In this document: positions 1,875-35,300 of the stretch, piece by piece
How the letters are laid out: the number at the start of each line of letters is the position of its first letter
Position numbering within the stretch: the stretch's first letter is position 1
From: a virus
DNA length: 64,000 nt
IMG/VR virus record: IMGVR_UViG_3300047476_001057
Coordinates: 62,001 to 126,000 of that record
Direction: 5' to 3' (one strand)
Made by a program: the position numbers and the translations under genes
The notes under the pieces: model-generated
What the model saw: only the letters and a program-made list of their open reading frames with translations
Told to the model about the DNA's origin: nothing
Database searches by the model: none

Positions 1875-1879
1875 CTGCT

Positions 1880-2746: not shown

Positions 2747-2771
2747 ACTACCTGCACGTGCTACCACTACG

Positions 2772-3113
2772 GTGAAGTTTCCAACTTACAATTGTAAACT
2801 TGTCATTACCGTAGTAGATAGTGTTAAAAAGGAAGTGGAAAAGCTATATAAAAAATATAAGATAACAGAGCCGTTTGATTTTGAAGCTGAAGGAGCCTTA
2901 GTAATGCCTGGTACGGAAACATATTATCTGTTATTAGATAATGCATTTCTGACACATAATACAATAGCTCATGAAATATTTCATGCTGCTGTAAGAATAA
3001 CTGAAGACAGAGATATTACTGATGAAGAAGCCCAGGCGTGGATGGCAGGACATATAACAGAGACATTGTATAAGTTTTTAGAAAAGAAGAAGCTACAAGT
3101 AAAACATGGCTGA
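2772..3113 (+). CDS. Small HExxH zincin-like protein
   Basis: About 113 residues from GTG 2772. An in-frame ATG at 2703 would add 23 residues but overlaps the previous gene by 44 bases and reads low-quality sequence, so the GTG start is preferred. The core holds HEIFH (H67 from the GTG start), the HExxH motif of zinc metallopeptidases, followed about 17 residues later by an acidic stretch (DEEAQAW) that could supply the third ligand. The fold resembles small ImmA/IrrE-type or other minimal zincins. It overlaps the muzzle gene by eight bases, suggesting coupled translation. It may process a tail protein during assembly or be ejected; the target is unknown. Confidence 0.65.
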   Translation: MKFPTYNCKLVITVVDSVKKEVEKLYKKYKITEPFDFEAEGALVMPGTETYYLLLDNAFLTHNTIAHEIFHAAVRITEDRDITDEEAQAWMAGHITETLYKFLEKKKLQVKHG

Positions 3114-6100
3114 ACAATCACAGAACCCAGGAGCTGTTACTAATTCCTTTACCAAAGGAATGGTAAAAGACATGAATGAGACTTTCGTTGGAGAGGGTCT
3201 GTGGACACATGCCCGGAACCTGGTTAATAACTCTCATGAAGGTCATACAGGTGTGGTAGGTAATGAACCAGCCAACCTGCATTGTGTTACACTTCCTTAT
3301 GATCTTATTGGTGCTATACATCTTACAGATGATCAGTGGGTTATTTTTACAACAGATGATGTAAACTCAGAGATAGGTATTTTTGATGAGAGCCAATGCA
3401 GTTATGAGAAAAAGGTAAACGATCCTTGTCTTGGTTTTAAGCGTTCCCATCTTATTACAGGAGCTTCCCGTAAAAGGTTTGATTGCGAGCGTCCTGTATA
3501 TTGGGCGGATGGTCTAAACCCTGACCGTTTCATGGACCTGGATAATATTCCATGGAAGTATACAGAAACAAAAGTAAATGACTGTATAGTTAAAACAATT
3601 ATAGAGCCAAGACAGCTTGACTGTGAAAAGATAAGGATAGCTCCTTTGTTAAAATCTCCTTGTCTTGTATTGTCAAAGGGAAAAACCTCTGGTAGTTTAC
3701 CCAACGGATCTTACCAGGCAGTAATAGCTTACTCAGATAATGGCGTAAGGTTTACTAATTACATAGGACTCTCTGAAGTGCAATCTTTGTTTACACATGA
3801 AAACGTAAGTTCATCTCTTGAGCTTACCGTGTCTAGCATTGACACCACTTATGATGAGTTTGAACTAGTGATACTTGCCAGAATCAACGGTGCTACTGTA
3901 GCAAAGAAGATAGGAAACTACTCTACTTCACAGGGTATTATTTACATAGACCGCTGGGACCAGGAGTATGAAACAGTACCTGTTGCACAGATTGTGTTCC
4001 GTGGTGACGCTTCAGAAAAAGCAGATGCTATCTATGAAGTGAACAATTACCTCTTGAAAATAGGAGACTATTCTAAGTTTAAGTTTAACTATCAACAGCA
4101 GGCAAATAGGATCAAAACAAACTGGGTTGCTGTTGAATATCCGGCTGACTATTACCATAAAGGTGGTAACAACACCGGTTACTTAAGAGATGAACAGTAT
4201 GCCTTCTTTATAAGGTTTATATATAACACAGGTGACCGTTCTGATTCTTATCACATCCCGGGTCGTGCTGCAACAGCTGCTGAACGTGCAAACGTTTTTG
4301 GTGGTGATGCATTTGAAACCCAGGGATCTAATCCTGTAACAAGAGAACGCTGGCAGGTGGAGAATACTGCCACTATAGACAGTCTTGTATTATCTAAACT
4401 TTCTGACGGTGGTAAAGTAATTGCTACGGGTAAGATGGGTTACTGGGAAAGTTCAGAACAGTATCCTGCTGACCGTTTTGATATATGGGGAGACCTCTGT
4501 GGTAAAAAGATCAGGCACCATAAAATGCCTGATGTAACTATTGCAGGTGGTAACATAGTGAACCACTTCTCTAACCAAGGTCAGAACATTGTTATCCTTG
4601 GTGTACAGTTTTCTAACATTACAGCTCCTGTAGATAACCAGGGTAATATAATCAACTCTATTGTTGGTTATGAAATACTTCGTGGTTCAAGAGAAGGTAA
4701 TAAGACTATTATTGCTAACGGTATGTTCAATAACATGAGAACATATCCAATACCTGGGGAAAACAGCATACAGGGATTATATCAGAATTATCCTTATAAT
4801 GATCTTCGTCCTGATTCATATTTGACTAGTCAGGAACAGACAGGTACAAATGGTACTGTAGACCCTAAGTCTACAAAACTTAGTGGTTACAAACAAAACG
4901 TATTTTCTTTTCATAGTCCTGAAACTACTTTCTCTAATCCTTATCTTAATGCAAGTGAGGTTAAGATTTATCAAGAGTTATCTGGTACAGCATTGGGATC
5001 TTTTATTAATCCATACAAGCATCCTAAGTTTAAGGTATCTACAAACTTTACAAGTGTACTTTCTAAACTTCTTTCAGTTATAGGTACTGTAGCTGCAATA
5101 GCAGGAACTGTAGGTGGTGGTTTTGATCTTAAGATGGAAGCTGATAATGATACACCTATCAATCTTCCTTTGACAGCAACACCTTCATACGCAGGTGACT
5201 ATGTTACTGTACTTGGGTCTGGTGCTTCTCCAATAACTACCGCACAGTTCTTTGCTACAATAGCTGCTAATGGTATTATTCTTACTACTTTAATTGCAAC
5301 AGGTATATTGCCTGGTATATATGATCAGCAGTTTACACGTTTGTTCTTATACTTATCACCCAAAGTCCAATATGCTGCTCAATATAATTCCCATGGGTTT
5401 TATAACAATGGTATTCCTGCTCAAGTTGGAGCAAGACGCCGTGAAGTTGTAGACGCTATCTACGTTAAAAACAACATGCAGTCTTTTAATGCAAGGTATG
5501 CTATTAATAACATGAACCGTGCTGGATTTGTAGCTGTTGAAATACCTGAGAATAATACACTTAATAATCCTACTACTGTTGATGACAGTAGGTTTACTAT
5601 TGGTGAAAAAAGTGCCACACTTAATACTATATACCAAAGTAATATTTCAGGTCATTATGGTGCTTTGAAGATAAACATGCCTTCTCAGTATGGACAGTTA
5701 AGTACAATTAAGCAATTGCCTATATCTGGAGGTTGTGTACATAACCTTTCACTTTTACCAGGTGCTAAGATGACTAGTCCTGTACTGTTTGGTGGAGATG
5801 TGTATATAAACAGGTTTACCGAAAAAAATACCATGTTGTTTTTTACAGACTGGTTACTTGGTGAACCGGATGAGACAGAGTATGATTATACACTTTATGC
5901 AGCATTACCATATCCGCGTTTTTGGATAAACAATGAGTCTAAGCATTCTGCATTCTTTAAGTTATCAAATAGTTATCGTGTACTTGACTATAGAAGCTCA
6001 GGTACATTTTATATAAAGAGAGGTTATTTCTACTTGTTTAATTCAGGTGTAAGAGACTTTTTTGTAGAGAGTGAAGTAAACCTAGCATATCGTGATTGGG

Positions 6101-7680
6101 ATGAAGAACCAGGTAAGCGTCATTATGATCCTTACAAGTTTTCTGATTTAAATAACATGTTCCGTAGTGATGTAGTTAAGACCGGAAACTTTTATAAGTA
6201 TGATTACAACCTTAGCATATCTAAGCTGTTCAGCTCACATATCACATGGGGTAATGTTTTAGGTTTGGATTACGATCCTGCAGTTGCTGAAACATGTTAT
6301 GTATACAGACCATCAAGAGTGAGATACTCACTTCCTCAGCAGGAAGAATCAAAGAAGGATAACTGGAGAGTATATCTTACAAATAACTACAAGGATTTCA
6401 ATGGTCCGGTTACTTCTATCAAACCCATAAATAAGACAGGTGCCTTGTTCATGATGGCACGCCAGAGTCCTATGCAATTTATGGGTGTGGAAGAACTTAA
6501 GCTTGACGGTACAGGTGCAAAACTTACTATTGGTGATGGTGGATTGTTTAATCAGCCTTTACAGTCTGTAGTTAATGCTGAAGCTTCATTTGAATACGGA
6601 AGTTGTCAAAGTAAAAATGCTGTAATTAACACAACCCATGGTGTGTTTTGGGTTTCCCAAAATCAAGGTAAGGTGTTTCAATATACAGGTCAGCTTGCTG
6701 AGATTAGCCGTAACGGTATGAAATGGTGGTTTGCTCAATACCTTCCAAGTGAGCTTTTGAAAGCTTTTCCAAACTATCCTTTATATGATAATTCTGTAAA
6801 GGGAGTTGGTGTACAGATGATGTATGACAATACCAACGAAATACTTTATATCACTAAGAAAGACTATAAGCCTCTCTTTAATGATATGATATATGACAAC
6901 AATGGCTTCTATAGAGTTGTCAATGGTATTAAAACCTACTATGCTTTTAATAGTGCAGGCTTTGAGGATGCATCATGGACTATAAGCTATGACTGCAAGA
7001 ACCAGATGTGGTTATCATTTCATGACTGGAAGCCATCATATATGCTGCCTGCAAAGACTCATTTTATGAGTGTAAACGGCAACAGTGTATGGAAACATAA
7101 TTCACGTTGTGATTTGTTCTGCAACTTCTATGGTGTGGACTATCCTTTTGATATAGAGTTTGTATCCAGCACTGGTCAGACTGTTAACTCAGTAAGAAAC
7201 ATAGAATACCTGCTTGAAGCGTACAGATACTATAATGGATGTAAAGATAAATTCCACATTCTGGATCAAAACTTTGACCAGGCTATGGTGTATAATTCTG
7301 AGCAGGTATCAGGTCTCCTTGAGCTTACTCTTAAAGACAAAAGCAATCCTGTCACTATGCTTAGTTATCCACAGGTTCAGTCACAGTCTATTAAAATCCA
7401 ATATTCTAAAGAAGAACAGAAGTATAGGTTTAACCAATTCTGGGATATTACTAAAGACCGTGGAGAGTTTAATGGTGTTAGTCTTCCAATGTTTGTAACA
7501 AAAGCAAGTGGTTATGACTATGCTATTAATCCACAATACGTAAACTACCAGAAATCACCTCTTGAACGCAAGAAGTTCCGTCATGTTGTAAATAGGGTGT
7601 TCTTACGTAAACTAAAAAGTGGTGACGTAAAATTATTGTTTAAGATATCTAACCAAAAACTTCTTCAATCTCCTAGATGA
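3106..7680 (+). CDS. Tail muzzle (tail stabilisation) protein, P22 gp10-like
   Basis: A 1524-residue protein. Its N-terminus (SFTKGMVKDMNETFV, then GLWTHARNLVNN) is a hallmark of the crAss-like muzzle family, which is related to the P22 tail stabilisation protein gp10 and forms the distal part of the tail tube. The sequence is rich in Asn, Tyr and Gly, mostly beta-structured, with one hydrophobic Gly/Ala-rich region near residues 650-740 (AVIGTVAAIAGTVGGG and a later IAANGIILTTLIATGIL), which may face the channel or touch membrane. It follows the ring genes and overlaps both neighbours (8 and 4 bases). No enzymatic motif is seen. Confidence 0.85.
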   Translation: MAEQSQNPGAVTNSFTKGMVKDMNETFVGEGLWTHARNLVNNSHEGHTGVVGNEPANLHCVTLPYDLIGAIHLTDDQWVIFTTDDVNSEIGIFDESQCSYEKKVNDPCLGFKRSHLITGASRKRFDCERPVYWADGLNPDRFMDLDNIPWKYTETKVNDCIVKTIIEPRQLDCEKIRIAPLLKSPCLVLSKGKTSGSLPNGSYQAVIAYSDNGVRFTNYIGLSEVQSLFTHENVSSSLELTVSSIDTTYDEFELVILARINGATVAKKIGNYSTSQGIIYIDRWDQEYETVPVAQIVFRGDASEKADAIYEVNNYLLKIGDYSKFKFNYQQQANRIKTNWVAVEYPADYYHKGGNNTGYLRDEQYAFFIRFIYNTGDRSDSYHIPGRAATAAERANVFGGDAFETQGSNPVTRERWQVENTATIDSLVLSKLSDGGKVIATGKMGYWESSEQYPADRFDIWGDLCGKKIRHHKMPDVTIAGGNIVNHFSNQGQNIVILGVQFSNITAPVDNQGNIINSIVGYEILRGSREGNKTIIANGMFNNMRTYPIPGENSIQGLYQNYPYNDLRPDSYLTSQEQTGTNGTVDPKSTKLSGYKQNVFSFHSPETTFSNPYLNASEVKIYQELSGTALGSFINPYKHPKFKVSTNFTSVLSKLLSVIGTVAAIAGTVGGGFDLKMEADNDTPINLPLTATPSYAGDYVTVLGSGASPITTAQFFATIAANGIILTTLIATGILPGIYDQQFTRLFLYLSPKVQYAAQYNSHGFYNNGIPAQVGARRREVVDAIYVKNNMQSFNARYAINNMNRAGFVAVEIPENNTLNNPTTVDDSRFTIGEKSATLNTIYQSNISGHYGALKINMPSQYGQLSTIKQLPISGGCVHNLSLLPGAKMTSPVLFGGDVYINRFTEKNTMLFFTDWLLGEPDETEYDYTLYAALPYPRFWINNESKHSAFFKLSNSYRVLDYRSSGTFYIKRGYFYLFNSGVRDFFVESEVNLAYRDWDEEPGKRHYDPYKFSDLNNMFRSDVVKTGNFYKYDYNLSISKLFSSHITWGNVLGLDYDPAVAETCYVYRPSRVRYSLPQQEESKKDNWRVYLTNNYKDFNGPVTSIKPINKTGALFMMARQSPMQFMGVEELKLDGTGAKLTIGDGGLFNQPLQSVVNAEASFEYGSCQSKNAVINTTHGVFWVSQNQGKVFQYTGQLAEISRNGMKWWFAQYLPSELLKAFPNYPLYDNSVKGVGVQMMYDNTNEILYITKKDYKPLFNDMIYDNNGFYRVVNGIKTYYAFNSAGFEDASWTISYDCKNQMWLSFHDWKPSYMLPAKTHFMSVNGNSVWKHNSRCDLFCNFYGVDYPFDIEFVSSTGQTVNSVRNIEYLLEAYRYYNGCKDKFHILDQNFDQAMVYNSEQVSGLLELTLKDKSNPVTMLSYPQVQSQSIKIQYSKEEQKYRFNQFWDITKDRGEFNGVSLPMFVTKASGYDYAINPQYVNYQKSPLERKKFRHVVNRVFLRKLKSGDVKLLFKISNQKLLQSPR

Positions 7681-10600
7681 TGAATAAGCTGTTACAACTT
7701 TTAGTAAGCACTGGAGATGTTTCTCATAAAGTGTTACCTACCTATCAGATGAGAGGAGAGGTTAGATCTATATCTCGTGGTGACATTCAGGGAGCTCCTA
7801 TGCCTGTTATAAAAATGACAGCTGAGGAAGCTAAGAGATTGCAAATGCAGAAGATGGCTCAGCAGGCTATCGCTAACCAGGCTACATTAAAACCCGGTTC
7901 AAAACTTACAGATCGTGATGCTCTGTTAGAAAAGAACAGACAATATGCTGCATCAACAGGTAAAAGATTTAACCCTAACACCGGTGGTGTAAGTCCATTG
8001 TTATCTGATAACACAGACAGAACAATGAGACGTGTCCAGGAAAACATAGTTAATCCGATGTTGCAACTGGAAGGTCTAATGACTGGAGCAGGTCTTGTTG
8101 GTAAAGGAGCAGGTAGTATAATGCAAAGAATTGCTCCGGCAATTGAAAACATAGGGTTTAATACGTCACGTAATATTAGAAAAGCATTTCCTGGTTTTGT
8201 AGATAAAAGAATGAGGGCTATAGATAAAGGAAACAAGTGGAGTCAGGAATGGTACAGTAATCCAACTATTCAGCAACGATATAATGATTGGATTGAAGAA
8301 TCTTCTCTGTTAAAACCAGAAGCGGCTTTATATCAAAGTCGTATAATGGACATTGCACCTACTGTTATTCGAGGTATCAATCTTGATAAGAGTTATGCTA
8401 ACAGACTTAGTGGTACTATAGCCAGAGATAACTATGAAAAACTTTTAAAAGAAGGAGCTATTACTAAGGGGACTACAGATCGTTTTGGGTTTGGAAAAAA
8501 TGATGTTGTAGGAAGGTATAGTCACGGAAGTAATGATGCTCTTATAGATGTATTGCATCCAGCTCTTGGTAGAAAGTTTAATACTGCTAATACTACAGTG
8601 CATGAAAACATTCATGCAATTACCAGAGGAAATGACGGACTTACTCAGAACGCTAAGAGTTTTTTAAAAGCTCCTTTTAATAGATCAACAGGTAACAAAT
8701 ATGATAAATATTTAACTAATCCAACTGAAGTGCATGCTCGCATTGGTGAACTCAGACGTCAGTTTGGACTAACTCCTGAAACAAAAGTAGATATATCTAC
8801 TATGAATAGAATTATGGAGTTGGGAAAACAAGGTAAAACTTCTGTTGATAAAAGATGGTTTGAGCTTGTTAATGACAAATCTAAATTAAGATGGTTGTTT
8901 AATAATGCTCCAACTGTTACAGTACCTATAGCTGGTGCAGCTCTATTAGACCAAAAAAGAAAAGGTGGAGTCATTATAGATTCTCGTGGTCAATGGGCTT
9001 ATCCTGGTAAACAAACTATAGTACCTACACCCACTGGGCAAATAACCATGCAGGGTGTTCCCTATCCTGTATATGGACAAGATGAAACTGGCTATGGTCA
9101 GATGATGTATCCTGATGGTGAATATGAATTTCCTGGTGAGATGGTGTATGAAACACCCATGATGAGTAAGGGTGGACAGCACGGTGGTCTTGACCGCTGG
9201 TTTGCAGAAAAGTGGGTAGATGTAAAAACAGGTAAAGCATGTGGCAGACAAGAAGGTGAGAAACGTAAAGGATATCCTGCCTGTCGTCCTTCCAGAAGAG
9301 TGAGTGAGGATACACCAAAAACAGCATCAGAACTTTCTAGTTCTGAGCGTGAGAAATTCAAGAGATCTAAAACTTCAAGTGAACGTATAAACTATCAACA
9401 CCGTAGAAAAGAATATGGTGGAGAACAAACTGAAACAGATATGACTAACAAACCGAACAACCCGTCATTATGGTCCAGAGCTAAGTCTTTGGCTAAACAA
9501 AAGTTTAATGTATACCCTTCCGCATATGCCAATGGTTGGGCTGCTAAGTGGTATAAATCTAAAGGTGGTACCTGGAGAAAAGCTGAGTATGGTATGGAAG
9601 TACCTATGATGGCTGAAGGTGGTAAACCTGAGTGGCTTATGGAGGCTCAGCTTAAAGCTCAAGGTTATTCAGGAGATGCACTCCGTCAGAAGATGGCTTC
9701 TATGGCTAATGGTGGAGAACCTCAGAATGCAGGTTTTCAGGCATTGCCTGAAGCTGTTCAGGAAAAGATTATGAATAGCATGGCTTATGGTGGATATATG
9801 GGTGAAATGGCTTACGGTGGTAGTGCTCAACAAGCTGCTATTGCTATTGCCATGAAAAAAGCAGGTAAAAAACCAAAGTCTATGGCAGATGGTGGAGAAC
9901 CTAACGGTGAGATGGCACTCGGTCAGATGGCTGCTGTACAAGATAAAATGAATAAGCTTCTTAAGTTTGTTAGACCAGAAGATAACTTAGATCCATGGAT
10001 TGCTTCTAAGCTTGCTGTAATGGATCACAGTGCAGACGCTATTGCGGACTACATGATGTACGGTCCTGATGCTGAAGAGATGGAAGAGCAAGAAATGAAA
10101 GGTGGCGGCTATGTTGTTACAAGAAGCAACGATCGTAAAGGTAAGACTCATAAAGTGACTGGTCCTGACGGAACTGTTAAATACTTTGGTGACTCGAAGC
10201 TTGGTCAGCATCCAAGAGATCCAGAAAGAAAAGCTGCTTTCTATGCACGTCATAAAAAGAACCTTGAAGGTAATCCATACTTCCGTGCCTTTGCAAGAGC
10301 AACATGGGAGAACGGTGGACAGATAGACGAAATGGCAAACGGTGGTTATATCGGTTATGATGGAAAGCGTCACATGTCTTCTACACCCACATGGTCTGGA
10401 AACATGGGTTATCAAACTGGTGGTGAACCTTTGTGGCATGCAAACTGGAACGATGCTGAACAATCTTATGAATCTATAGATCCGATTGCAGAACAGTTTA
10501 ACCAGGATGTAGCAGCTATGCCAGCACGTGCTGTATCTATGAATGTTCCTGCAAGTGCTCCTGTTGCTAAAGCAGTGGCTCGACCACGTAGCAAAGGATC

Positions 10601-11471
10601 TAGCTACAGTGTGGTTGACTACATGAATAGCCTAGATATGCCATCTGATTATGCTACACGTAAAGCCCTTGCAGAAGAGTATGGTATAAAAGGATACAGA
10701 GGAACTGCTGATCAAAATATGATGTTGATTTCTGCTATCAGTCAAGCAGTAAAGTCTCAGGGATCTAAAGCAGCTGCTGTTTCTACACAATCAGGTTCTG
10801 CGGACTATGCTATGAATAGCAGTAATATGCTTAGAAGAGGTTACACTGCTTCTAGTAACCCATTCATGTTTGGTGAAATACCTCAAAGACCAGCTGTAAA
10901 AACTTCTGGTGCAGCTAAAGCTGCTGCAGCTAAAAAAGTAAATGCAGCTAATGCTCAAGATGCAGAAGATGCAAGATCGTTTGCTAAGTATAAAACAGAA
11001 GATCCATATTTCTTTGCAGAAGAATCTGATCCATCGTGGGTAAAGGCTATTGATATGCCTTTTACTTACTTAAGAGATCTTGGTGCCCAAGTTGTTTTAG
11101 ACCAAGACTTAATGGCATTAGGTCAACTACTTGCTCTTGGTGCAGGAACGAGGTTTATTAAGGGTAAATCTAAGATAGAGCCTTACTACGGAGGACAGAA
11201 AGCTTTGCCAAGAATGCCTGGTAAATCACTGCCTGCTCCAGCTGCCCCTGGTCCAAGAGGTCCTATTCCTGGACCTGCAAGTGGTGGATACATTAAGCCA
11301 GGAGTTCCAGGTACATCTCCAAGAGGTTTTGAAATTCCAAGTGCTGGTTTAAGAAGTCCGGGTTATCCAAGGTTTGCTCAAGGTGGACCTGTAGTGGGCG
11401 ATGAAATGGAAGTAACTCCTGAACAACTTGAACAGCTTCGTGCACAAGGATATCAGTTTGAAATAATCTAA
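7677..11471 (+). CDS. Large virion-associated protein with HExxH domain, DUF5872/DUF5754-like domains and MxxGG repeats
   Basis: A 1264-residue protein overlapping the muzzle stop in an ATGA junction. Visible parts: an N-terminal helical region; a zincin-like motif HENIH at residues 309-313 with a possible third ligand E351; a region at about 500-640 that resembles the DUF5872 family (WVDVKTGKACGRQEGEKR, later VYPSAYANGWAAKWYKSKGG); a region at about 810-880 resembling DUF5754 (HKVTGPDGTVKYFGD, LGQHPRDPERK). Between and after these lie more than ten short MANGGEP/MAYGGYM-like Gly-Gly motifs. An Ala/Pro-rich tail follows, ending in a GDEMEVTPEQLEQLRAQGY segment. Its place after the muzzle suggests an ejected or tail-lumen cargo protein; that is inference. 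Confidence 0.65.
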   Translation: MMNKLLQLLVSTGDVSHKVLPTYQMRGEVRSISRGDIQGAPMPVIKMTAEEAKRLQMQKMAQQAIANQATLKPGSKLTDRDALLEKNRQYAASTGKRFNPNTGGVSPLLSDNTDRTMRRVQENIVNPMLQLEGLMTGAGLVGKGAGSIMQRIAPAIENIGFNTSRNIRKAFPGFVDKRMRAIDKGNKWSQEWYSNPTIQQRYNDWIEESSLLKPEAALYQSRIMDIAPTVIRGINLDKSYANRLSGTIARDNYEKLLKEGAITKGTTDRFGFGKNDVVGRYSHGSNDALIDVLHPALGRKFNTANTTVHENIHAITRGNDGLTQNAKSFLKAPFNRSTGNKYDKYLTNPTEVHARIGELRRQFGLTPETKVDISTMNRIMELGKQGKTSVDKRWFELVNDKSKLRWLFNNAPTVTVPIAGAALLDQKRKGGVIIDSRGQWAYPGKQTIVPTPTGQITMQGVPYPVYGQDETGYGQMMYPDGEYEFPGEMVYETPMMSKGGQHGGLDRWFAEKWVDVKTGKACGRQEGEKRKGYPACRPSRRVSEDTPKTASELSSSEREKFKRSKTSSERINYQHRRKEYGGEQTETDMTNKPNNPSLWSRAKSLAKQKFNVYPSAYANGWAAKWYKSKGGTWRKAEYGMEVPMMAEGGKPEWLMEAQLKAQGYSGDALRQKMASMANGGEPQNAGFQALPEAVQEKIMNSMAYGGYMGEMAYGGSAQQAAIAIAMKKAGKKPKSMADGGEPNGEMALGQMAAVQDKMNKLLKFVRPEDNLDPWIASKLAVMDHSADAIADYMMYGPDAEEMEEQEMKGGGYVVTRSNDRKGKTHKVTGPDGTVKYFGDSKLGQHPRDPERKAAFYARHKKNLEGNPYFRAFARATWENGGQIDEMANGGYIGYDGKRHMSSTPTWSGNMGYQTGGEPLWHANWNDAEQSYESIDPIAEQFNQDVAAMPARAVSMNVPASAPVAKAVARPRSKGSSYSVVDYMNSLDMPSDYATRKALAEEYGIKGYRGTADQNMMLISAISQAVKSQGSKAAAVSTQSGSADYAMNSSNMLRRGYTASSNPFMFGEIPQRPAVKTSGAAKAAAAKKVNAANAQDAEDARSFAKYKTEDPYFFAEESDPSWVKAIDMPFTYLRDLGAQVVLDQDLMALGQLLALGAGTRFIKGKSKIEPYYGGQKALPRMPGKSLPAPAAPGPRGPIPGPASGGYIKPGVPGTSPRGFEIPSAGLRSPGYPRFAQGGPVVGDEMEVTPEQLEQLRAQGYQFEII

Positions 11472-11474
11472 CTT

Positions 11475-14450: not shown

Positions 14451-14457
14451 ACCTGTT

Positions 14458-14504
14458 AAGTTTAGTTTTAAACCTTTCAGATTTTTCCGTATATTATTAA
14501 TGTA
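14458..14504 (+). promoter_or_regulatory. Promoter-like element, second copy
   Basis: The 58-base gap before the gene at 14509 contains AAGTTTA, AAACCTT, GATTTTTCCGTA (14480-14491) and TATTAATG (14495-14502), the same series in the same order as at 559-606. The exact run ATTATTAATGTA is shared by both sites. The start codon follows within five bases of the last shared base. It probably starts a transcript for the cargo and polymerase genes downstream. A short GTTTA/TAAAC hairpin lies inside the gap (around 14459-14472) but has no U-run. Confidence 0.5.
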
Positions 14505-14508
14505 ACCT

Positions 14509-17499: not shown

Positions 17500-17510
17500 G
17501 TGTGAACCCT

Positions 17511-20500: not shown

Positions 20501-20828
20501 GGAAAATGCTCTTAAGAATGCTTATGATAAGTATAAAGCAGATGCAGAAAGAGCTGGTAATCCTGTAGCCAACTATGACCAGTGGAAAGACTTTAGTGCT
20601 GCTGCAAAAGAAATCCGCAAAGGATTTCAAGCTGCCCCTGCTACAGAACAGACAGAGGAACAACCAGAGACCTATGCAGAACAGTTTGATGTGGCTGCTG
20701 TCAATACAGAAAACATATCAGAAGATGTTGTAGATCAAATATTGAGTTCTACAAAATCAGAAAAAAGTGATAACTTTGAGAACAAGGTTGATGACTTTTT
20801 TACTAACCTGACCGTTTGTAATATCTAA
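17511..20828 (+). CDS. Large crAss-like cargo-type virion protein with hydrophobic centre and Pro-rich linker
   Basis: A 1105-residue protein. I choose ATG 17511 because it sits in the CCCTATG context used by neighbouring genes; an in-frame GTG three codons upstream is the alternative. Residues about 225-330 and 550-590 contain Gly/Ala-rich amphipathic or hydrophobic stretches (FTVGALGQMALETYLTAGF; FLMGALTGRFIAPFSYAGG) that may insert into membrane. The rest is helical. Near residues 949-995 there is a Pro/Glu/Val/Thr-rich linker, followed by a small C-terminal domain. It lies between another cargo-type gene and the polymerase gene, separated by 11 and 8 bases. Probably an ejected inner-virion protein that helps form a channel; that role is a guess from composition. 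Confidence 0.5.
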   Translation: MEKFTIDPGLYLPSDPLPQAISPVIQDYENSGAFIQSQQDYADSISMPGDSITDLINKVEQYQAQSRALLDQGNPEIPVGPGYQFNMNGVMNKLARSLNPEKPTLQASAAPMTLGSQSDFDRYAQSEDFQTFGYVPSLGSEQEYRYGRAMTWGDTVGKAFAGGSALAWDTFVEGWKGWGRMTEALFTWDSSKLMGSEEERYEIAKKQEEIFNKYAIYNTAESEDSLLNRQFFGNMLQQTGFTVGALGQMALETYLTAGFGKAISAAVGGIGKARGLKTAMNVGELINDTRKVQQVISNTQKVNNALKLIPRSIVPLYGTAEDMIKAGKAGAGTLQLGMLLGGGIKRELSIFNMARSEAIFEAASTYKELENKLVQDFVNTNGREPSVTELETIRQTADNASADNFATNLGILTLMNRIQFGNMFKNFNTSRKIFSSNATALGDDVFEVSGKVGDKTIKKVYEKGFVGRLGAVRDISKTFGKKKAAWEAAKSAGLGIMKFEGSEGAQELLQEASNKGLSAYYYDLYNGKKGYSSKIDNVLSSIQNPITDIDGAKTFLMGALTGRFIAPFSYAGGKLFAGKEGKEIAAKKREAVNIINTFYTDPTQYTKEWIANVKVQNRAAENMEQAVANGDKYTFYNTKDSAFAKAVSSAIKLNMYESLKGTLTELGQDLTEQEFKEAFNMDATAANRENVQQFMGKVVGQMDEYYTLYNNLKDKYGDRIVPELYRYNKPEEYERVKIAKIALDNAIEMLTTNVFKARQTTKRAAQLQSEIAANANIGASSIEVLNKLGSEQSIGDHISMLNKEIGFYEKAETLDAEQKAILNLKKQELKLSQAWQDAFEDVMTGQGESFFEEGSIKKIYEAYENLVNFYNKSEEKNVSVSIEDIEDNFTKFLDYIQLNKDGKAYIDAMNLLADPYNMNLIIEATKSSIDEMGKIMQKEHLEEVNKIAEDPKPPVEVPPAEDPVPPATDPVVVTTTETAQPATEIQPEVKPAENAEMENALKNAYDKYKADAERAGNPVANYDQWKDFSAAAKEIRKGFQAAPATEQTEEQPETYAEQFDVAAVNTENISEDVVDQILSSTKSEKSDNFENKVDDFFTNLTVCNI

Positions 20829-20836
20829 TATACCCT

Positions 20837-23800
20837 ATGAACAAGTGTAGTATAAGTATCCAGACTTTTGCTGACTTTACCAAGCAACTGTTGGCACAAG
20901 ATGCCAAGTATAAAAACTTTGCAGAAGTGGCAAAGTTTATCATCAAACGTCCTGGACAACCGGATAGTGTAAAGATGGTAGCTCTTAAAGGGCTTGCCAA
21001 GATATATGACCAGCTGTCTAAAAAAGATAACACTTTTAGTTTCTCTGCAGATGACAGCAAGATCATTGATGTAGACCTTGAGAAGGATAACTTAGAAACA
21101 CAGTTTAAGAATATTGCTGCTAACTACCAGGTGCGTCCGGTAAGTGGTCCTTCTATAGACGCTATCAGAAGTGACATAAAGAACCTTGCAACACTTCCTG
21201 TATTACAGCTGCAAGATGCTGTTACCAAAATCGTAAAAGACATAGCGGCCCTTGCCAAGACCAACTTCCGTAAGAGTGCAGACGAGATGGTTAAGTCTAT
21301 TGGTGAACTCTATGACAGAGCTATCAATGAACTTGCAAAGAATACAGGTGTAAGTCCTATCATCCGTAACTCTCTCACACAGCTTCTTAACACAGAAAAG
21401 AACATTGCTACAGAAGCTGCCAGTGATTATATACCCTTAAAGAACACTATCTATGGTGACACCAAGCTTATTGTAAAGAAAGATGGTAGTGTGTTTGAAG
21501 TGTTAAAAGACAACAATGGTAAGTTTATAGACATTAACTCACAGGATGGTACAACCGAAGTTGTATTTGACAGAAGTGCCGGTGACCAGTTGTTTAATCT
21601 CAGGGTTGACTCTTCACCTTTTGTAGGTGGTAATGATGGTACACAGTATATTTTTTCTCACAATGAACTGAGAAATGGTATGAACCTCCGTGACCGTACC
21701 GGAAAAGTGATGACCAACCAACTTCTTGGTTTGGACAATCCCCTTTCTGCTTTAGAAGTAATAGCATCACGTACAGAGGTAGACCGCAACCAGGATCGTA
21801 TCCGCAGGATCCGTACTGAGATCCCTAACCGTACACTTGAAACACAGGAAGTAGCCTCACAGCAAAAAGCTTTGCTTGCAGGAAGTCCTGTACTCACTGT
21901 GTTTTCTCCAGTAGATGGAGCACAGATCCAGTTCAGAATTCCTGGACAACAGGGAGCTATGATACTATACGGTATAGATAACTATGCTATAGTTTATCCT
22001 GATAACCGCACAGTGCCTGTTGACTTTTCTGAGTCTCAGAAAGAACTTATTCTAAAGCTTGCCCGTAAGAACACCACTAATGAAAACGGTGTAAACGTAA
22101 CAGAACCTCTTACAGAGGAGGACTTCTATAACCTGAAAGCCAGCTACGAGAAGTTTAAAGATTTCAAGAAAGCTGTACAGGAAATACTTGACCTTAACAA
22201 AGACCAGGCTGAGGTTGTCTTACCGCAGGCTTTGGTTAATACATATATCAGTCTTGCCCGTACAGGTGAGACTATTGCTGTTGCCCCCACTGCCGATCAG
22301 CAAGCTAGTTTATCTACACTTTTAAATAAAGAAGGCAATCCTGGTCAAATTAGCTTTAACGTTGTTGAAGCTCTTGATGATGAAAACTACTCAGAACCAC
22401 GCCGCGTAACCAAACCGATCATGGTTGCCAAGCAGGGTGGTGTGTGGACATTCATATCAGACCTGAAGGGTAATGAGATGATAGCAGTAGAGCGTGATGG
22501 CAAGACAGAATACATAACGTTTTCTGACTACATGCAAAACGTTCTTAATGTTTCTCCTGAGATTACTATACCAAATTTCCCAAGTGCTTTTGCATGGTTG
22601 TACCAGAAAGCTAACGGTAAGTTTCAACCTATTGCACTTAAGTATACACCTGTAGAAACAAGTGCAGATATTGCACGTCTTGCCATGGGCTTTGGTCAGC
22701 TGATCAAAAAGATGAATGATCCCCAGGCTGAAGGACCGAGAGAGCTCAGAAACTTCAACCTGAACAACTTTGGGTTTTCTCCTTACAACCCAACAGGAGC
22801 AACCAGCTTTGCCGGTGACTTTGATAGTTTCAAAGATCCAAGTGGTGAACGCAGTGTATCTATCCAGATCCATCCTATGACTATGAACTGGAGCCAAGTG
22901 CCACGTGATGTAAGAAAAGCTCTTACTATTTACATAGACGTTCCTGTAATGAATGCATTCTTACAGGTGGTACGTAAGGCTGCAGAGATGCCTGCCTTTA
23001 AATCACAGAAGCTTGACCTGAACACAACTGCCGGCAGAAATGCCCTGGTGAAGTTTATAGATGAAGATCCTCAGCTCCGTAAAGAGTTAATGGGTGCTTA
23101 TGAAGATATCAATACCCATATCTACCGTAAGTTTCAGGGTATAGGAGAGAAGCTTACCAAGACTTCTTATAACGGTGAGTTTGACATACCTAAGATCTAC
23201 ACCATTATGGAAAATGAGAAGAGTGATCTTAGTGGCAGATGGAAGCTTAAAGTGAAGGACCGTCAAAGTGGTAAGGATATAACCAACATGGATAACTACC
23301 GTAGCATGACTACGGAAGAAGTGTTCAGCTTTGGTGGTATACAAGCTGTGTTTGCAGGACCAAATGTTTCTGCTGTACAGACAGTAAACAAACCGGCACC
23401 GGTAACACAAAACCCGGCTAACAATACTGCTGCAGATAATGTACCTGGTACTACAGGTGGTATGCAGATAGACCTTGACTTTGAAGACGGAGCTTTTGAG
23501 CTTGCCATGGACACAGAGCTTTTCCAGGCTTACCAGGCAGGACAGTTCCAGCAGGAGCTTGACTGGATCAAGGCTAACCTTCCTAAAGATATAACAGTAG
23601 AAGACCTTGCCGAGATCATGGATGATCTGAAAGCTGAAGGTCGTGTACTTGGTTACTTTAGAGACAGGGTTATCTACCTTAACGAGCAACTTTCAGGCAG
23701 GGGATCTGGATACCATGAAGCATTCCATGGTGTGTTTCGTAAACTCATGGACGCTGCAACACGTGAGCGTTATCTAAACCTTGCTAAAGAAAAGATGGGA

Positions 23801-26800
23801 GCTGTTTCCAAAGAGCAGATTCAGGAGTTCCGTCAGAGACGTTCTCTCTATCATCTTTCTAATGCACAGGTAGTAGACCGTATGGCAGAAGAATACCTGG
23901 CTGACAGGTTTAAGTCATATAAGTTAGAAGGACGTGGTGCCCAGGAAGGATGGTTAAAGAAACTTCTAAACCTAATAGACAGCATCATTCGTTTCTTTAA
24001 CAAGAACTATAAAGAGATAGACAGCCTGTTCCAGAGAATAGACACAGGTTTCTATAAGAACGCACAGATAGTAGGAGAATTCAAGGAAGGAGCGTTTGAA
24101 ATGCTGCCTACCCGCAGCACTCTTGTAACAGGACCAAACGGTAAAGCTGTACAGAGAAAGAACTTCCTTAATAAGATTGAGCAGGCACAGCTTGTTAACC
24201 GTCTTGCTGAACTGGCTTCTTTCTCAGTAGGTAAAAACTTTGAAGAGAAGTTTGCAGCAGCCCGTAAAGAGTTAATTGCTGAACTAAACATAGATAACCT
24301 GGTAGCCCAGAATCCTTCAGAGGAAGCAGCTATTCGTGCACGTTACGAATCTATCCTCCAGGATAAACTATACACACTTGGTGTACCTGTATCCATGATC
24401 AATGAAACAAGTAATGCTGCTATGGACCAGAACATTAGTCTGATCCAGGCGGACCCTGCACAGCTGGCAGCTTATAACAAGCAGCAGGCTGATGCACTGA
24501 AGTCACTGAAGCAGCAGGTAAACCAGAAGCTGAACAAGATTTCTATAGCAAACATGTACTTTGATCCTGAAGCTATGCTCAGTGAAGAGGAGTTTGATGA
24601 AGATGATCTTGGTGATGAAACAAACTACGAGGATAGCTTTGTAAACATGAACACCCTGGATGGTCTTAGCCGCCAGTTCCGTTCATTCTTTGGGCTGATC
24701 TCTTACATCCATACAGATGACCTAGGTATAAAAACTACCCGCATGGTAGATGGAGCTACAGTGTTTGATACCATGATGAAGATCTTGGCTGACACTCCTG
24801 TAGAGAACATGATGACCCGTATGGAAGAGACCCTTGAAAAGATGCTGGAGTCTGAGAACATGCTGGCATATGAGCGTCTTAATGCAGTATGGGATAAGAT
24901 GAAGAAGTACTTCGGTCTTAACGAAGACAACCAGCCTACACGTAACACCAACCTGTACAACCAGTTTATTGATGTATTCAATGTAGCTGATCTTTCTACA
25001 GATGTTTATTATGTAAACACACGTAATGACTCTTCATCACTAAGGGTTATTGATGCCACTATACAAAATGACATCAACCAGTACTACGAGAAGCTGAGAA
25101 GAAAGTATGAGACCAGCTTCATGAAGAAGTCTGTTAAAGAGCGTGAAGAGATCCTGCGTCTGGCTAAATCTGTTATCAAAACAGAAGTGACCACACCAAC
25201 AGACTTGGGTAGCCAGAGTTTTAACTCACTGAAGGCTAGAGCCAAGAAAGTACACAAGGCTCTATCTGATATGGGTATAGTGCTGCCTTTGCATACTATC
25301 ACTTACTCACTCATTGCTATTGACGTAAAAGAAAACAAAGTGGAGCTTAAACCTAAGAGCAAAGCTTTGAAGCAATACATCCTTGACCAGGAGTTGATCA
25401 ACACTGGTGCCTACCTTGACAAAGACTTCTTTGACAAGCTTGTTAGATATGTAGATGAAAACACTAACATCTTTGACAAGACTGTAGATAAAGATATTGC
25501 TGCAGATGGTACACTGGGTCTTAGTGATCTTGAAAAGAACCAGCTCCGTTTAAAGAAGAGAGGTCTTGGTCTTATCAATTCTGTACTGAAGAAGACCGGA
25601 CGCTACGTTGTTAAATATGATCTTGACACTGTAGTTTCTGTGTTCCGTAATGCAGAAGGTAAGAACGTTTACCGTTATGTACGTTACACGCCACCACTGG
25701 TTATCTCCCAGTCTTTGAGAGAGAACGGATGGCAGGGTACTTATACTAACTTCCCTGTTATTGCAAGATTCTTGCAGGACAACCCACTCACTGCTAACAA
25801 ACCTGAGAACCTGCTCTACTTACAGAACCTTGAGCTCAGAACTTTTGGTGGTGCACGCCAGACACTCAAAGGTGTAGAGCGTGACGGTGTTACTGCAAAG
25901 ACTATTGACACTGCAGGATACTATCTTTCTTATGTGCTGATGTCTATGAACCGTAAGACAACGGTTAATAACAATGCAGCTATCACCACTTTCTCAAGGA
26001 TGCTTACACAGAATGAGGCATCTAACACTATATACATGGTACCTAATCTTTACAAGAGAATGGTTACCAGTGCTGGTTATGTATCTGAAGACAAGCAGAA
26101 CCTGGTAGTAAAAGGTTTTGTAGATGTTATCAAGCAGGAATACCAGCGTATACAAAGAGAGTGGGCTACACGTAATGACCAGAACAAGGAGAAGTTTAAT
26201 AACTACAACGCTGTTTTGAACCAGGACGGATCTGTAAACACAGAAGATCCATCTCTGCGTGCATACAACTTTAACATGCTGGCAGACTTCTTTGAGTTTA
26301 ACAATCCTGCATCCAGGACTGCTAATCCTCAGCGTGCTGACATCCGTAACCAGCTTATACAAAGTGCAAAAGATGGTGTGAAGTTTGACAAGCTTGACCT
26401 TGGTGCACTGGAGCGTGAGCTTCTTAACTATGCAGAAGAGAAGTTTGCTGCCCACTTAGATATACTGAAGTCTTACAAGCTTGTTGAAGAAGACCAGCAG
26501 ACTGGTGGACTTACAAGCCGTCTGATCCCTGACAGCTACAGTGTTGATGGTACATCTGTCAGTATTGAGACAGAAGATTCCAACCTGGAGTCTTATCTTA
26601 AAGATGTATACTTCAACGTATTTATAAACAACCTGCAGGTATCACAGTTCTTTGACGGTGATATTGCCATGGGTGTTAAGAACTTTGCTGACTACTTTAA
26701 GCGTCAGAAGATGAACGTTGCTGCCGGTCCTTCTATGAAGAGTGGTAGCCATAATGTAGCTTATGTAGATGAGATCACTTTCCTTATCAATGAGTCTGAA

Positions 26801-29800
26801 CTTGAAGAAGGTCAGTATGATGAGAATGACGAGATGCCTGAAGGCTTTGCAGGGCGTGCCCAGAAAGTCAAAGGCTTTGATGGTCAGTCTATCACTACCA
26901 TAGAGCACCGTATTGAACAATACCGTAAGCAGGGTAGGCTTGTAGATGATGTAGAAGGTCAGAAGTCTGTAGAAGAGATTCTTAAAGCCAGCCGTTACAG
27001 AAAACTTACAGAAGAGGAAGTAGAGTTCCTTAAAGATAACAAGGTGGTACTAGGTCCAAAGAAAACCGTAACCGGTGCTTTGGTGTACTACCATAAGCAA
27101 GCAGAACACATACTGTTCCGTACAGACAGTTCTTACATGGTTGTACCGGACGGCATGACCCGCAGCCAGGTAGAGAAGAGACTTGCTGAACTATATAACC
27201 AGGCAGACATCTTTCGTTCCAAGTTACGTAATGCAGATACATATGATGTCACTGCAGATGGTGGTGTGGAGTTTATTGAAGACCAGCTCCGTGATCTGTA
27301 TACCCAGATACATCGTTATTGGGAACCACTACCTCACCGTGTTGCCCATCACAATATGCTGAACTCAATGGAGACTAACGACATTGATCAGCTCATGGAT
27401 CTTACAGCTTCCAAAAAAGCTACACTGCTTCCTGTAAAAGTTAATGAAAGAGGCATTACTGACCTTGGCAAGTCTAAACTCAGTGTTCCTAACATATATA
27501 AGTTTGACCAGGTAGAAACTTCTAAGGTGTCTACTGACATCAGTTCTACTACACAGCTTCAGCATTTGATAGATGCAGACATCAACCTTGACGATAAAGA
27601 GGTGGACTCTAATCTGAAAGATGCAGTGTTGCAGTATCGTAAGCTTACCGGCAGACTTTCTGAGGTGAGCCTGGACAGACTGAACAACATCATCAAAGAT
27701 GAAAATGGTAATGTAGACGTACGTGCTATTATCCGTAGCATGAGAGATGGTCTTGAGTCACAGGGAGCTGACAGCAATACGCTGAAGTTCTTTGAAATTA
27801 GAGACGACCAGCCTGTACACAACATCAATCTTCCTTTGCTGAAGAAGATGTTTACTTACTACTACTTTGCTTTCTACTCTAACAATGTGTTTAACAAACG
27901 TCAGAGTGGTAGAAAAGACTATATCATTACCAGCTGGGGATACAAGCTTATTGAAGACCGTGCTACCGGTGAAATCATTAAGAGTGACGAGATAGCTAAA
28001 GACCCACAGAAGTATAACGACAACTCTAAGTATAAGCTTCGTTATCCTGGTGTAAAGTATGATGCTGCTAATGATCGCTACATCGTAGAGGTGATGGTAC
28101 CACGTCCATACTTTAAGAACCAGGAAGAGATTGACCTGTTTGAGCGTAAGCTCAGTGAGTTCCTTTCTACCCGTATTCCAACAGAGGACAAGCGTTCTAT
28201 GATTGTGGCTAAGGTGGTGGACTTTATTGATGGTGCTTACCAGAATGCTATCGTCATCCCTCAGATCATACATATCCTGTCAGGTTCTGACCTTGACATT
28301 GACTCTCTCTATTCTCATACGTTTGCTACCTATGAAGACTTCAATGGTAAGCAGAAAGTATATGGTGAGGCAAACACTCCTAAAGAGCAGTTTGTGGAAT
28401 ACCTCCAGAGCATGATGGAAGATAAGACGCTTGCTCCACTTGTAAAAGCAGAACTGGATAAGGTTTATAAAGAGCAAGTTACTGATGTACCTGAGTCTTT
28501 AGAGGATCTTGCAGAAGACCTGAACCTGCCGTTCTATAACTATACAAAGGAGCAGTGGATTGCTGCTTTGGATGAACTGCGTAAACAGCGTAATGATTAC
28601 TATGAGCAGGCACAAGCTATAAAGGAAAGGCGTAAGCAAACCCAGGAAATTTACCAGAGACTTAAAGCTGAGAATGAGCAGATGGTGCAGGAGATCACTG
28701 ATGCACTTAAAGCTTCTCTGAAAGCTGAGGGTATTGACACTACACCGGACGAGTTTGCTGAACTTCTTTGGGAACAGACTTCTGTAATGAGAGAGCGTTT
28801 TCGTGAGCAGGGTAGTCTTCGTGAGTCTTTAGAGCAAATGAATTATAGCATTAAGGTGGCTTATGATATAGTGACATCTGCTAATAACAAGATCCGTAAC
28901 TCCCGTAATGAACTGGAGCGTATCAGCAGACTGATGAAAGTGCTTGCTACACTCAACGTACTTGCCCGTAAGAAGATGCCTGTCACTGTAGCTCAGTATA
29001 CTAAGGAAGCATCTAAGAAAGGATCACTTGTACCTGAGACATTACAGAACGACTTGCTCCAGGCTAAGATGGACATCCTTGGTAATCCTTATACGTTTAA
29101 GAAACTATACATACAAGAACGTTCTGACGTTTCCAGGTTTGAGAAGATAGCTGTGGCTATGAAGAAAACCATCAAGGACGTTATCAACAAGAATAACATC
29201 TTCTCACCAGACGGTATTATTGGATCCCGTGACATGGTGAAGAGTTCCGGTGCAGGTATTGGTATTGCTGCCAACATCAACAAGTTTGCTGCTTTTGCTT
29301 CTAAGAAAGGACTTAGACTTAATGCTCCGGTGTGGAGTGTAAACGGTAAGAACTATGTAGACTTCACTGCAGACAGTGAGAGCCGTCCTATCTCAGACAT
29401 TGGTAACGCCCTGGGTATGCAGGCTGACGCCAAGAGTAATCCTATCCCGGCTGTACTTAATCTTAATGAGGTTAGCTTACCTATCACTCTTGTAATGATT
29501 GCACAGAAGCTTCCGCTTGAGATGGCTATCACGATCAACTCTGTACCACTGGTATCTAAAGTGATCCAGCGTGTTATGGAAGAGAAACGTGAGATCCGTA
29601 CCATAGCTGACCTCTTTAACAAACGCAGTCTTACAAGCATAGCCCGTGAAGAAATGAGCACTGCTATCGAGCAGCTCAAAGAAGACGGCTTGCAAGCTGA
29701 GCTATTTGAAGTAGATGATGAACAGAACATCATCTATGACATGGCAGGTAATCCTAAGTTTAAGAAGGACCTAATGCTGGAATATGAGTTTGACTATACT

Positions 29801-32350: not shown

Positions 32351-32374
32351 TACCTAACCCTACGAAACATACAT

Positions 32375-35300
32375 ATGGCCTGTCAAGTATTTAGAAATCC
32401 CAAGCGTGAAATCGTTAAGGTGGTTGCACCTAACGGACAACCTTCTAACTTATACAAGGACATCCTTGCCCGCCCTGAAATGCAGGGTAATAAAGAGGCC
32501 GCCTTGGATGCCTGGTTGGTTGCTTATACAGATGATTTTAAGAAAGTCCATGGTGACTGGGAAAAGAGTCCAAAGACTTTTAAAGGAGTGCTGGACAGCA
32601 ATGGTGAGCCAGTATATAACCTTGTATTACCTGGTGCTGTATATAATCTTTCTGATGTAGCAGAACAGTTTGCTTACCAGCAAGAAGAACTTGAGAGAAA
32701 CTTTAGATTCACTTCAGGCTTGACACTCATGAGCCGTGATAAAGCCCAAAGAATAGCAGACTGGGTAGCTAAGAATAACAAATACAACTCTGTCAAAGTA
32801 AGCATCCGTGGTGTAAATGATGGTTCTAAGATTATGTATGCCGTGGATATAGCTGAGAAACCTTTAAAAGAGATTTACAAACTTCAGTCCCAGCAAGCTA
32901 TTGAACTACAGAAAGCCAGGGTAAACCAGGTGATCAACCGTCTTGCAGTTAAGTTTCCAAAACTGGAGACCAGATGGATTAGACCTGAAGATTTGGATCA
33001 AAAAGATCATGCTATAGATGTATCTACTGTACGTGGTTTTGTACGTGACGGTGTAATTTATCTTGTAGAAGGAAGAGCTACTGAGTCAGTAGCTATAGAA
33101 GAATTACTACATCCTTTTATTGAGTCACTGTTTCAAGACAACCTTGCTCTTTTTACAGGACTGTTCAATAAGGGTAAGGAGCGTTACTCGGATCTGTGGA
33201 AAAAGATTCAGGGAGCCTATCTTGACAGCCGTGGTTTTACTGAGGCTGATCGTAAGAAAGAACTTGTCACTCGTGTATTACAGCAAGTATTGCAGGAAGA
33301 CATGAACAATCCTGAGAAATCTTTTCAGGAGCTGAAGTCTCTTTTACAAAGATTCTTTAACTGGCTCAGTGAACTCTTGCAGGAAGTATTTGATATCCGT
33401 ACAGACGGTAACATCATGATCCAGGCATACAACCTGCCTACCAAGATCAGCTACGAAGAGCTTTCTGAAATCATCAACACTAAGAACGTACAGCTTTCTA
33501 CAGCTGTTGCCAATGCTAACTCATACAACACAGACGGTGAAATGGACAACCAGGAACTAAACAGTTCCAAGGACCGTAAGCTTGCCCGTGTAGAGGAGCA
33601 GATGGACATAGTGCGTAAGGTGATTGGTGATCTTAAAAAAGCTAAGGGCACTGATGCTAAGATTGCCACACTTGAAAAGGTGTTGGTTAACTTAAACAAG
33701 TACCGTCAGATCATACAGAATGATGAATACACTGTGTCGGTTACTAACCTTACCGGTGGCGGTGAGATAGATAACCAGCAGGCTTATAATGACTTTAAAG
33801 AGTTTGGTACGTTCATCCACTTTGTACTTGAGAACGTTCAGAAGATGAGCGTTGAGTCAGGTAAGAAAGTAACAACCATTCTTACCCGTGAGATGTTTGA
33901 TATGCTAGCTGACAGCTATCCTGGTGAGTTTAACATCGTTAACCTGGACAGAAACCAGATGTACGAGATGAGCCAGGAGATGATCAGCTATCTTCAGTTC
34001 TATATTACCGGTGGCTACACCCTTCTTCCTGAGATATCAGTGGTAGGTAAGGATCGTAATGACCGTAATATAGTGGGACGTGTGGACATCATGGCAATAG
34101 CTCCTAACGGACAAGTAGAAATCGTGGATCTCAAGACTAAGAAGGTATATACTAATGCACAAACTGGTTTGATATTTAACAAGCCTTATCCTGTAGCTAC
34201 TACAGAACAAACAGATACTACTTTTTCTAATACAAGAAGATCAGTATATGACAGCTGGGATACCCAACTTGGTGTATATGAAAGACTTTATGCTCAGGAA
34301 GGTATTCCTGTAGGACGTAAGAGCGTGTTGGTATTAGTTTACCGTGGTGACATGGTTGACGTTACAGATGTAAACACACCTGGTCAGTTTCAGTTTGAAT
34401 ACTCAGGATATGAGTTTGTAAACTACAGCTCTGACCAGCGTCAGAACGGAACAGATCTTGAGAAGTTGAACTATGCTAACACAGAACGTAAAGTAAAGCG
34501 TGCTGTCCCTGTAGCAGGAGAAGTGTCAGAAGAAACCAAGACTTCTAAAGAGCCTATTATCTTCAACCTTAAGGATGAAGAGTACAATCGTCTCTTAACT
34601 AACCTGGAGTCAATAGCTGCAGAAGAGATCAAGAAGATAGAAAAGTCTTTGTCTCAGTTAGATGAGAACAATGAGAACGATAAGAAGCTAAGAGATTACT
34701 ACAAGACACGCCGTGAGTCTATCCGTAAGATTCAGGACAGCTTTAAGAAAGAAACCTGGGAACCTGCGTACAAGCTTACTGCCATCATGCAGTTTATGAG
34801 TGACAACACTGCTGCCATGAAACAAACTGCACAAGACATTGCTAACATCAAGGATCCTGTAGAAAAAGCCCGTAAGCTTGATGACCTTAAGAACAAGGCA
34901 GTAGCCTTTAACTATTTTCTTTCTGACATTCGTGAGTTGCTCATCAATCTTAATGACGAGCGTAATGATAAAGCCATCAACCTGCTTGATAACATCCAGG
35001 CTAATATTGACTACACTATAGGTGTATTTAATGAGCTTGGTTTTAACTACCTAGTAGATGTACTGAAGTCTTCCATGAGTCCTCAGACTTTAGAAAAGCT
35101 TAACGCAGAAAGAGCTGAGAGTATAGACCCACTGATCAACCATCTTAAAAAGAAACTTGAAAAGCTAAAGGACCAAAAAGAACAGGGTGGCAGTGGTAAC
35201 ACTATATCTTATTCTATTTGGCAGGGGCTTAGTAACATGGCTCGTACAATAGCTAAGGTACCTATTGACACCAAGAACGAGATAGAAGCTTTAGAGGTAC

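What the first reader, a model, noticed from the sequence alone, without database searches (positions are those of the whole stretch)
2772..33400. Four HExxH or HExxH-derived domains spread over neighbouring virion genes
HEIFH (small protein at 2772), HENIH (residue 309 of the 7677 gene) and HEAFH (residue 960 of the polymerase gene) are seen directly; EELLH in the 32375 gene is a fourth, altered copy. HExxH with a downstream Glu is the zincin signature. Several peptidase-like domains in one ejection block suggest staged cutting of virion or host proteins, for example release of the polymerase from its giant precursor.
Basis: partly seen in the sequence, partly recalled or inferred. Interest (0 to 1): 0.65.

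Follow-up and report, generated by a model that had tools for sequence, protein, structure and literature searches.

The report
Zincin-like domains in crAss-like phage cargo
A crAss-like phage carries four protease-like (zincin) domains in and beside the proteins it probably injects with its RNA polymerase; three keep an intact zinc site, one has lost a zinc-binding histidine, and comparison with relatives suggests separate families rather than one cutting cascade.

Summary
In detail: HEIFH, HENIH, HEAFH and EELLH are where stated, and three HExxH in 12,739 aa compares with 0.06 expected. The window is a crAss-like phage. Three motifs belong to separate families that conserve HExxH plus a downstream Glu: P0001 (phrog_1365); a zincin cassette that recurs on variable cargo-type proteins (P0003); and a domain about 1,500 aa ahead of the RNAP DxDxD motif, also at the C-end of crAss001 gp47 (P0004). 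The fourth, EELLH (P0005), is a homologue of the P0004 domain with its first His fixed as Glu (12 of 24 records; the other 12 keep HExxH). The staged-cutting, polymerase-release reading is weakly supported: a sister group has HEAFE in the polymerase gene, and two members that were read have no HExxH there or in the next gene. The closest precedents are the zincin-like peptidases of phage polyvalent proteins and of the N4 virion RNAP, which is packaged uncut. Best reading: several polyvalent-protein-type zincins, one possibly cis-acting, one a swappable host- or envelope-directed effector, one diverged. No activity was tested, and structure comparison did not confirm the folds.

The parts
2703..3113 (+). 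P0001, small stand-alone zincin-like protein (phrog_1365); HEIFH at 2970-2984, third-ligand Glu109 at 3027-3029; the true start may be later
   Evidence: phrog_1365 E 3e-9; H, E, H, E, A invariant in 15 sequences; same place between ring 1 and the muzzle-like gene in all relatives whose locus reaches that far
7677..11471 (+). P0003, 1264-aa cargo-type carrier protein
   Evidence: conserved middle found in 68 viral loci with variable attached parts
8349..8861 (+). P0003 zincin cassette, residues 225-395; HENIH at 8601-8615, Glu351 of the NPTExxAR motif at 8727-8729
   Evidence: alignments A4 and A7, invariant H, E, H, Y, P, E, R; found by profile in 11 of 50 related records
9696..10322 (+). conserved carrier core of P0003, residues 674-882
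   Evidence: 72% identical in the nearest relative; 68 loci
10494..10817 (+). C-terminal stretch like endolysin ends (possible wall binding), residues 940-1047
   Evidence: PHROG endolysin and L-Ala-D-Glu peptidase families E 6e-10 and 5e-11, Bacillus phage endolysins
20837..32350 (+). P0004, 3837-aa virion RNAP fusion; DxDxD motif at 28289-28303
   Evidence: matches crAss RNAP subunits, crAss001 gp50
23480..24160 (+). P0004 zincin domain, residues 882-1108; HEAFH at 23714-23728, EE (residues 1018-1019) at 23888-23893
   Evidence: homologous to crAss001 gp47 2100-2294; Glu of ExxA kept in 58 of 58
32375..38908 (+). P0005, 2177-aa protein with altered zincin, PD-(D/E)XK nuclease domain (33791-34159) and a gp49-like part (37439-38626)
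   Evidence: Pfam PDDEXK_1 E 6e-5; crAss001 gp49
32942..33697 (+). altered zincin domain of P0005, residues 190-441; EELLH at 33098-33112, conserved Glu296 at 33260-33262
   Evidence: homologous to the HEAFH domain; EExxH in 12 and HExxH in 12 relatives; model
1203..2746 (+). context: tail ring proteins 2 (1203-1874) and 1 (1880-2746)
   Evidence: Pfam CrAss_Ring_2 E 3e-21 and CrAss_Ring_1 E 2e-13
3106..7680 (+). context: muzzle-like virion structural protein
   Evidence: PHROG virion structural protein E 3e-64; position as in crAss001 and cr118_1

Best explanation
The block is the tail, cargo and virion-RNAP region of a crAss-like phage. It carries four zincin-type domains of the kind known from phage polyvalent proteins, belonging to at least three families. 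Three (in P0001, P0003, P0004) keep a complete HExxH...ExxA site and are probably active metallopeptidases. The fourth (in P0005) is a homologue of the P0004 domain with a fixed His-to-Glu change and is probably not a normal zinc peptidase. They most likely do not form a cascade. The P0004 domain sits where crAss001 has a protein end (the C-end of gp47) and most likely acts in cis or on co-injected cargo. The P0003 domain sits in an exchangeable part of a cargo-type protein with an endolysin-like end and most likely acts on host envelope or host proteins. P0001 is a separate small peptidase whose virion location is unproven. Shown: motifs, families, homology, and the state of the sites in relatives. 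Inferred: peptidase activity, targets and timing.
For: Conserved zinc-site residues in each family; excess of HExxH over chance. HEAFH domain homologous to crAss001 gp47 residues 2100-2294 of 2341 (BLASTP E 2e-10) and to the fused polymerase of cr118_1; HEAFH-to-DxDxD spacing 1525 aa in the window, 1475 in cr118_1, about 1490 in G010. gp47, gp49 and gp50 were detected in crAss001 virions by mass spectrometry (PMC10172136). The P0003 cassette is in 11 of 50 related records, at different positions; another carrier has a YkuD L,D-transpeptidase domain. EELLH homologous to HEAFH; HExxH and EExxH forms separated by one branch, support 0.999, motif column removed. Polyvalent-protein zincins and the HExxH domain of N4 virion RNAP are published precedents (PMC5512222; PMC12633501).
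Against: No activity, cleavage product or virion proteome exists for this phage. No Pfam zincin model matches the four domains above threshold. Foldseek of the EELLH model found nothing in PDB (best E 1.6) and the HENIH model had low confidence (pLDDT 44), so the zincin fold rests on sequence. The match of the HENIH profile to N4 RNAP is not significant (E 0.03-0.16). The part of P0004 ahead of the domain could not be matched convincingly to gp47.
Confidence: 0.55

Rival explanations
1. Staged cutting: the HEAFH domain cuts the 3837-aa precursor and releases the polymerase, and the other domains cut further virion proteins.
For: The HEAFH domain lies ahead of the RNAP part, and in crAss001 the homologous domain ends a separate protein, gp47, so a protein boundary exists at about that place.
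Against: Sister phages keep the fusion but have HEAFE, and the two that were read have no HExxH in the polymerase gene or the next one. N4 virion RNAP is packaged uncut (PMC5512222). The P0003 domain is absent from the nearest relative.
Confidence: 0.2
2. The domains are kept mainly as structural or packaging modules inside cargo proteins; peptidase activity is secondary or lost, as in the altered copies.
For: HExxE and EExxH forms persist over large groups with the remaining site residues conserved; in N4 the region with the domain is required for encapsidation (PMC5512222).
Against: Complete sites are kept in 48 of 58 polymerase-gene domains and in all P0001 and P0003-type domains read, where ligands are among the few invariant residues.
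Confidence: 0.2
3. The motifs are chance matches in large proteins.
For: No Pfam or PDB match confirms the fold.
Against: Expected number 0.064 against 3, and conservation in each family.
Confidence: 0.02

Closest known systems
Zincin-like MPTase domains of phage polyvalent proteins (Iyer et al. 2017, PMC5512222)
   Same: HExxH with a Glu in the next helix, inside giant multidomain phage proteins thought to be delivered into the host, sometimes more than one per protein, always present with N4-like RNAPs; proposed roles include self-processing and attack on host proteins
   Different: crAss is not mentioned in that paper; EExxH/HExxE states in two consecutive genes and the exchangeable cassette on a cargo-type carrier are not described in the passages read
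HExxH domain C1 of phage N4 virion RNAP (PMC12633501)
   Same: zincin-type motif in a giant virion RNAP; the HENIH profile's only PDB matches (E 0.03-0.16)
   Different: single-subunit-type RNAP, domain on the C-terminal side of the polymerase; no significant homology shown
crAss001 gp47 (putative RNA-polymerase subunit; virion cargo, PMC10172136)
   Same: C-terminal HEAFH domain homologous to that of P0004
   Different: separate protein, encoded on the other strand from the RNAP gp50; fused to the RNAP in the window
phrog_1365 family
   Same: P0001 matches over residues 23-130
   Different: function unknown; in some gut crAss phages not in the virion block
Crassvirus cargo protein 1 (gp45, PF25725)
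   Same: some relatives of the P0003 carrier hold this domain in the same protein
   Different: not detected in P0003 itself

Membership tests
zincin-like metallopeptidase (P0001, P0003, P0004 domains) | HExxH conserved among homologues | tested here: met
   (P0004 domain 48 of 58; the rest HExxE)
zincin-like metallopeptidase (P0001, P0003, P0004 domains) | third ligand Glu in a downstream helix | tested here: met
   sequence: ExxA Glu invariant; helix position only from a weak model for P0003
zincin-like metallopeptidase (P0001, P0003, P0004 domains) | zincin fold | tested here: inconclusive
   P0003 model pLDDT 44; P0001 and P0004 domains not modelled; PDB profile hits weak or none
zincin-like metallopeptidase (P0001, P0003, P0004 domains) | metal binding and peptidase activity | not testable with these tools
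   needs experiment
zincin-like metallopeptidase (P0005 EELLH domain) | HExxH | tested here: not met
   EExxH fixed in the window's group; homologous domains with HExxH exist
zincin-like metallopeptidase (P0005 EELLH domain) | zincin fold | tested here: inconclusive
   element order fits; no PDB match; homologous to the HEAFH domain by profile
polyvalent-protein MPTase | domain inside a large multidomain protein delivered into the host | tested here: inconclusive
   large multidomain proteins: yes; delivery inferred from crAss001 virion proteins (PMC10172136)
crAss-like virion RNAP | DxDxD motif in a giant protein with similarity to crAss RNAP | tested here: met
Crassvirus cargo protein 1 | CARG1 domain (PF25725) | tested here: not met
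   absent in P0003; present in relatives of its carrier

The most novel reading that the evidence does not exclude
Two homologous zincin domains in consecutive cargo genes form an active/altered pair: in the window's group the second has Glu fixed in place of the first zinc His, and in a sister group the first has Glu fixed in place of the second His. As both changes are to Glu and the other ligands stay, the altered sites may bind another metal or regulate a partner. The exchangeable zincins on the cargo-type carrier would make a polymorphic injected effector system of crAss-like phages.
Probability: 0.15. Interest if true: 0.7.

Novelty: new variant of a known kind. Interest (0 to 1): 0.5.

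Why it matters
crAss-like phages are the most abundant viruses of the human gut and inject giant RNA polymerase-associated proteins with other cargo by a route that is not understood. The HEAFH domain at the end of gp47 of the cultured phage crAss001, with its natural HEAFE and EExxH variants, makes it directly testable whether a cargo peptidase is needed for infection. The exchangeable domains on the P0003 carrier point to envelope- or host-directed enzymes carried in the virion.

Tried and rejected
Pfam on the proteins and on two domain alignments: no zincin model above threshold. PDB profile searches: P0001 nothing of meaning; EELLH nothing of meaning (7rdr has no matching stretch, an artefact); HEAFH weakly to Pro-Pro endopeptidase (E 0.013), lost with the larger alignment. 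Foldseek of the EELLH model in PDB: nothing. The HENIH model was too weak to search. Direct scans for the HENIH domain found nothing; it was found through the carrier. A common origin of the three intact domains: not supported. A membrane segment after the P0003 zincin: hydropathy scan negative. Invariance of EExxH and YHEAFH in pattern-based scans was set aside as retrieval bias and replaced by profile retrieval; about five of the 58 polymerase-gene records still come from the HEAFH pattern, some EExxH records from the EExxH pattern, and some records are near-duplicates.

Full report
What was checked. The window is bases 62001-126000 of a 126,629-base IMG/VR virus record. Two genes match Pfam CrAss ring proteins 2 and 1. 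The 3837-aa gene matches crAss RNAP subunits over its middle and has the DxDxD motif at residue 2485. The 2177-aa gene matches crAss001 gp49, and the opposite strand carries PolB-, DnaB- and DnaG-type and PD-(D/E)XK genes. It is a crAss-like phage. The four motifs are at the stated places, and three HExxH in 12,739 residues is far above the 0.064 expected.

P0001 (2703-3113). It matches phrog_1365 (E 3e-9). Nineteen viral loci carry a close relative, and wherever the locus reaches far enough the order is ring 2, ring 1, P0001, muzzle-like gene. In 15 sequences, four of them from gut crAss phages, the invariant residues are H90, E91, H94, E109 and A112: the expected zinc ligands, the catalytic Glu and one Ala. 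In gut phages cr60_1 and cr114_1 the relative lies among small genes upstream of the terminase, so a virion role is not shown.

P0003 (7677-11471). The HENIH domain had no relative by direct search. The protein's conserved middle (residues 674-882) occurs in 68 viral loci, and what is attached to it varies. In the nearest relative the N-terminal part is unrelated and has no HExxH. Eight further carrier frames (two nearly identical) have an HExxH at varying positions; six of them follow it with Y-x-x-x-P-[ST]-E-x-x-A-R. A profile of six sequences found the domain in 11 of 50 related records, partly the ones it was built from; in an alignment of ten, H, E, H, Y, P, E and R are invariant. Other carriers have a YkuD L,D-transpeptidase domain or the crassvirus cargo protein 1 domain. 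P0003 has near its end a stretch like the ends of Bacillus phage endolysins. The domain profile's only PDB matches are the N4 virion RNAP over its HExxH (E 0.03-0.16): suggestive, not significant.

P0004 (20837-32350). The HEAFH domain (residues 882-1108) is homologous to residues 2100-2294 of crAss001 gp47 (2341 aa; BLASTP E 2e-10) and to part of the fused polymerase of cr118_1. The distance from HEAFH to DxDxD is 1525 aa here and 1475 in cr118_1, about 1490 in G010. In 78 of 80 loci found with the YHEAFH pattern the frame continues at least 260 aa beyond the motif. Profile searches of 36 and 50 records gave 58 readable domains: 48 HExxH and 10 HExxE, with the Glu of ExxA kept in all 58.

P0005 (32375-38908). 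The EELLH domain profile aligns with the HEAFH profile over 105 columns, motif on motif (83.5%, pairwise E 8e-6). Profile searches gave 12 records with EExxH and 12 with HExxH (HEFSH, HEYAH, HEYLH and others); the downstream Glu is kept in all 24. In a tree built without the changed column one branch (support 0.999) separates the two states. In all ten EExxH records in which both genes were read, the polymerase gene keeps HExxH. An AlphaFold2 model has the element order expected of a zincin, with the motif in helix 48-66 and the Glu in helix 101-118, confidence mostly 74-93 in that part. Foldseek found no PDB match; in the viral library it found large phage proteins, some named as carrying polyvalent-protein domains.

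Mechanism. The four domains are best read as zincin-type domains of the polyvalent-protein kind (PMC5512222) in and beside the cargo and RNAP block. That gp47, gp49 and gp50 are in crAss001 virions is published (PMC10172136). A peptidase ahead of the RNAP suggests cis cutting, but phages of the HEAFE group (G005, G010) have no HExxH in the polymerase gene or its neighbour while the RNAP motif is intact, and the N4 enzyme is packaged uncut. The P0003 domain behaves like an exchangeable effector on a protein that may touch the cell wall. Activity, targets and timing are inferences.

Novelty. Zincins in injected phage proteins and beside virion RNAPs are known.

Noticed in passing
11475-14450: 991-aa gene after P0003: residues about 226-357 look like a lysozyme or lytic transglycosylase (ESGGNY...GKYQF, by eye) and are shared with carrier proteins of other phages; no Pfam match.
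   Followed up: partly
L187:2964-5879: A relative of the P0003 carrier holds a YkuD L,D-transpeptidase domain and DUF5872, a further sign that the carrier exchanges envelope-acting enzymes.
   Followed up: no
9147-9374 (P0003 residues 491-566): DUF5872 domain, 65% identical to a Prochlorococcus phage; a stretch shortly after it (591-626) is 92% identical in Synechococcus phages.
   Followed up: no
L314 and L353 (record G036): Both zincin domains (HEAFH and HEFAH) lie in open frames of 5160 aa in one record, so the polymerase gene and the next gene appear fused there.
   Followed up: no
44135-44986 (-): Gene similar to spore photoproduct lyase (PF20903, E 2e-10).
   Followed up: no
17502-20828: 1108-aa gene weakly like residues 373-607 of crAss001 gp47 (E 0.04), so gp47 may be divided here between this gene and the front of the polymerase gene.
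   Followed up: partly
46519-47379 (-): DUF932 protein with an HEILH at residue 225, probably chance.
   Followed up: no
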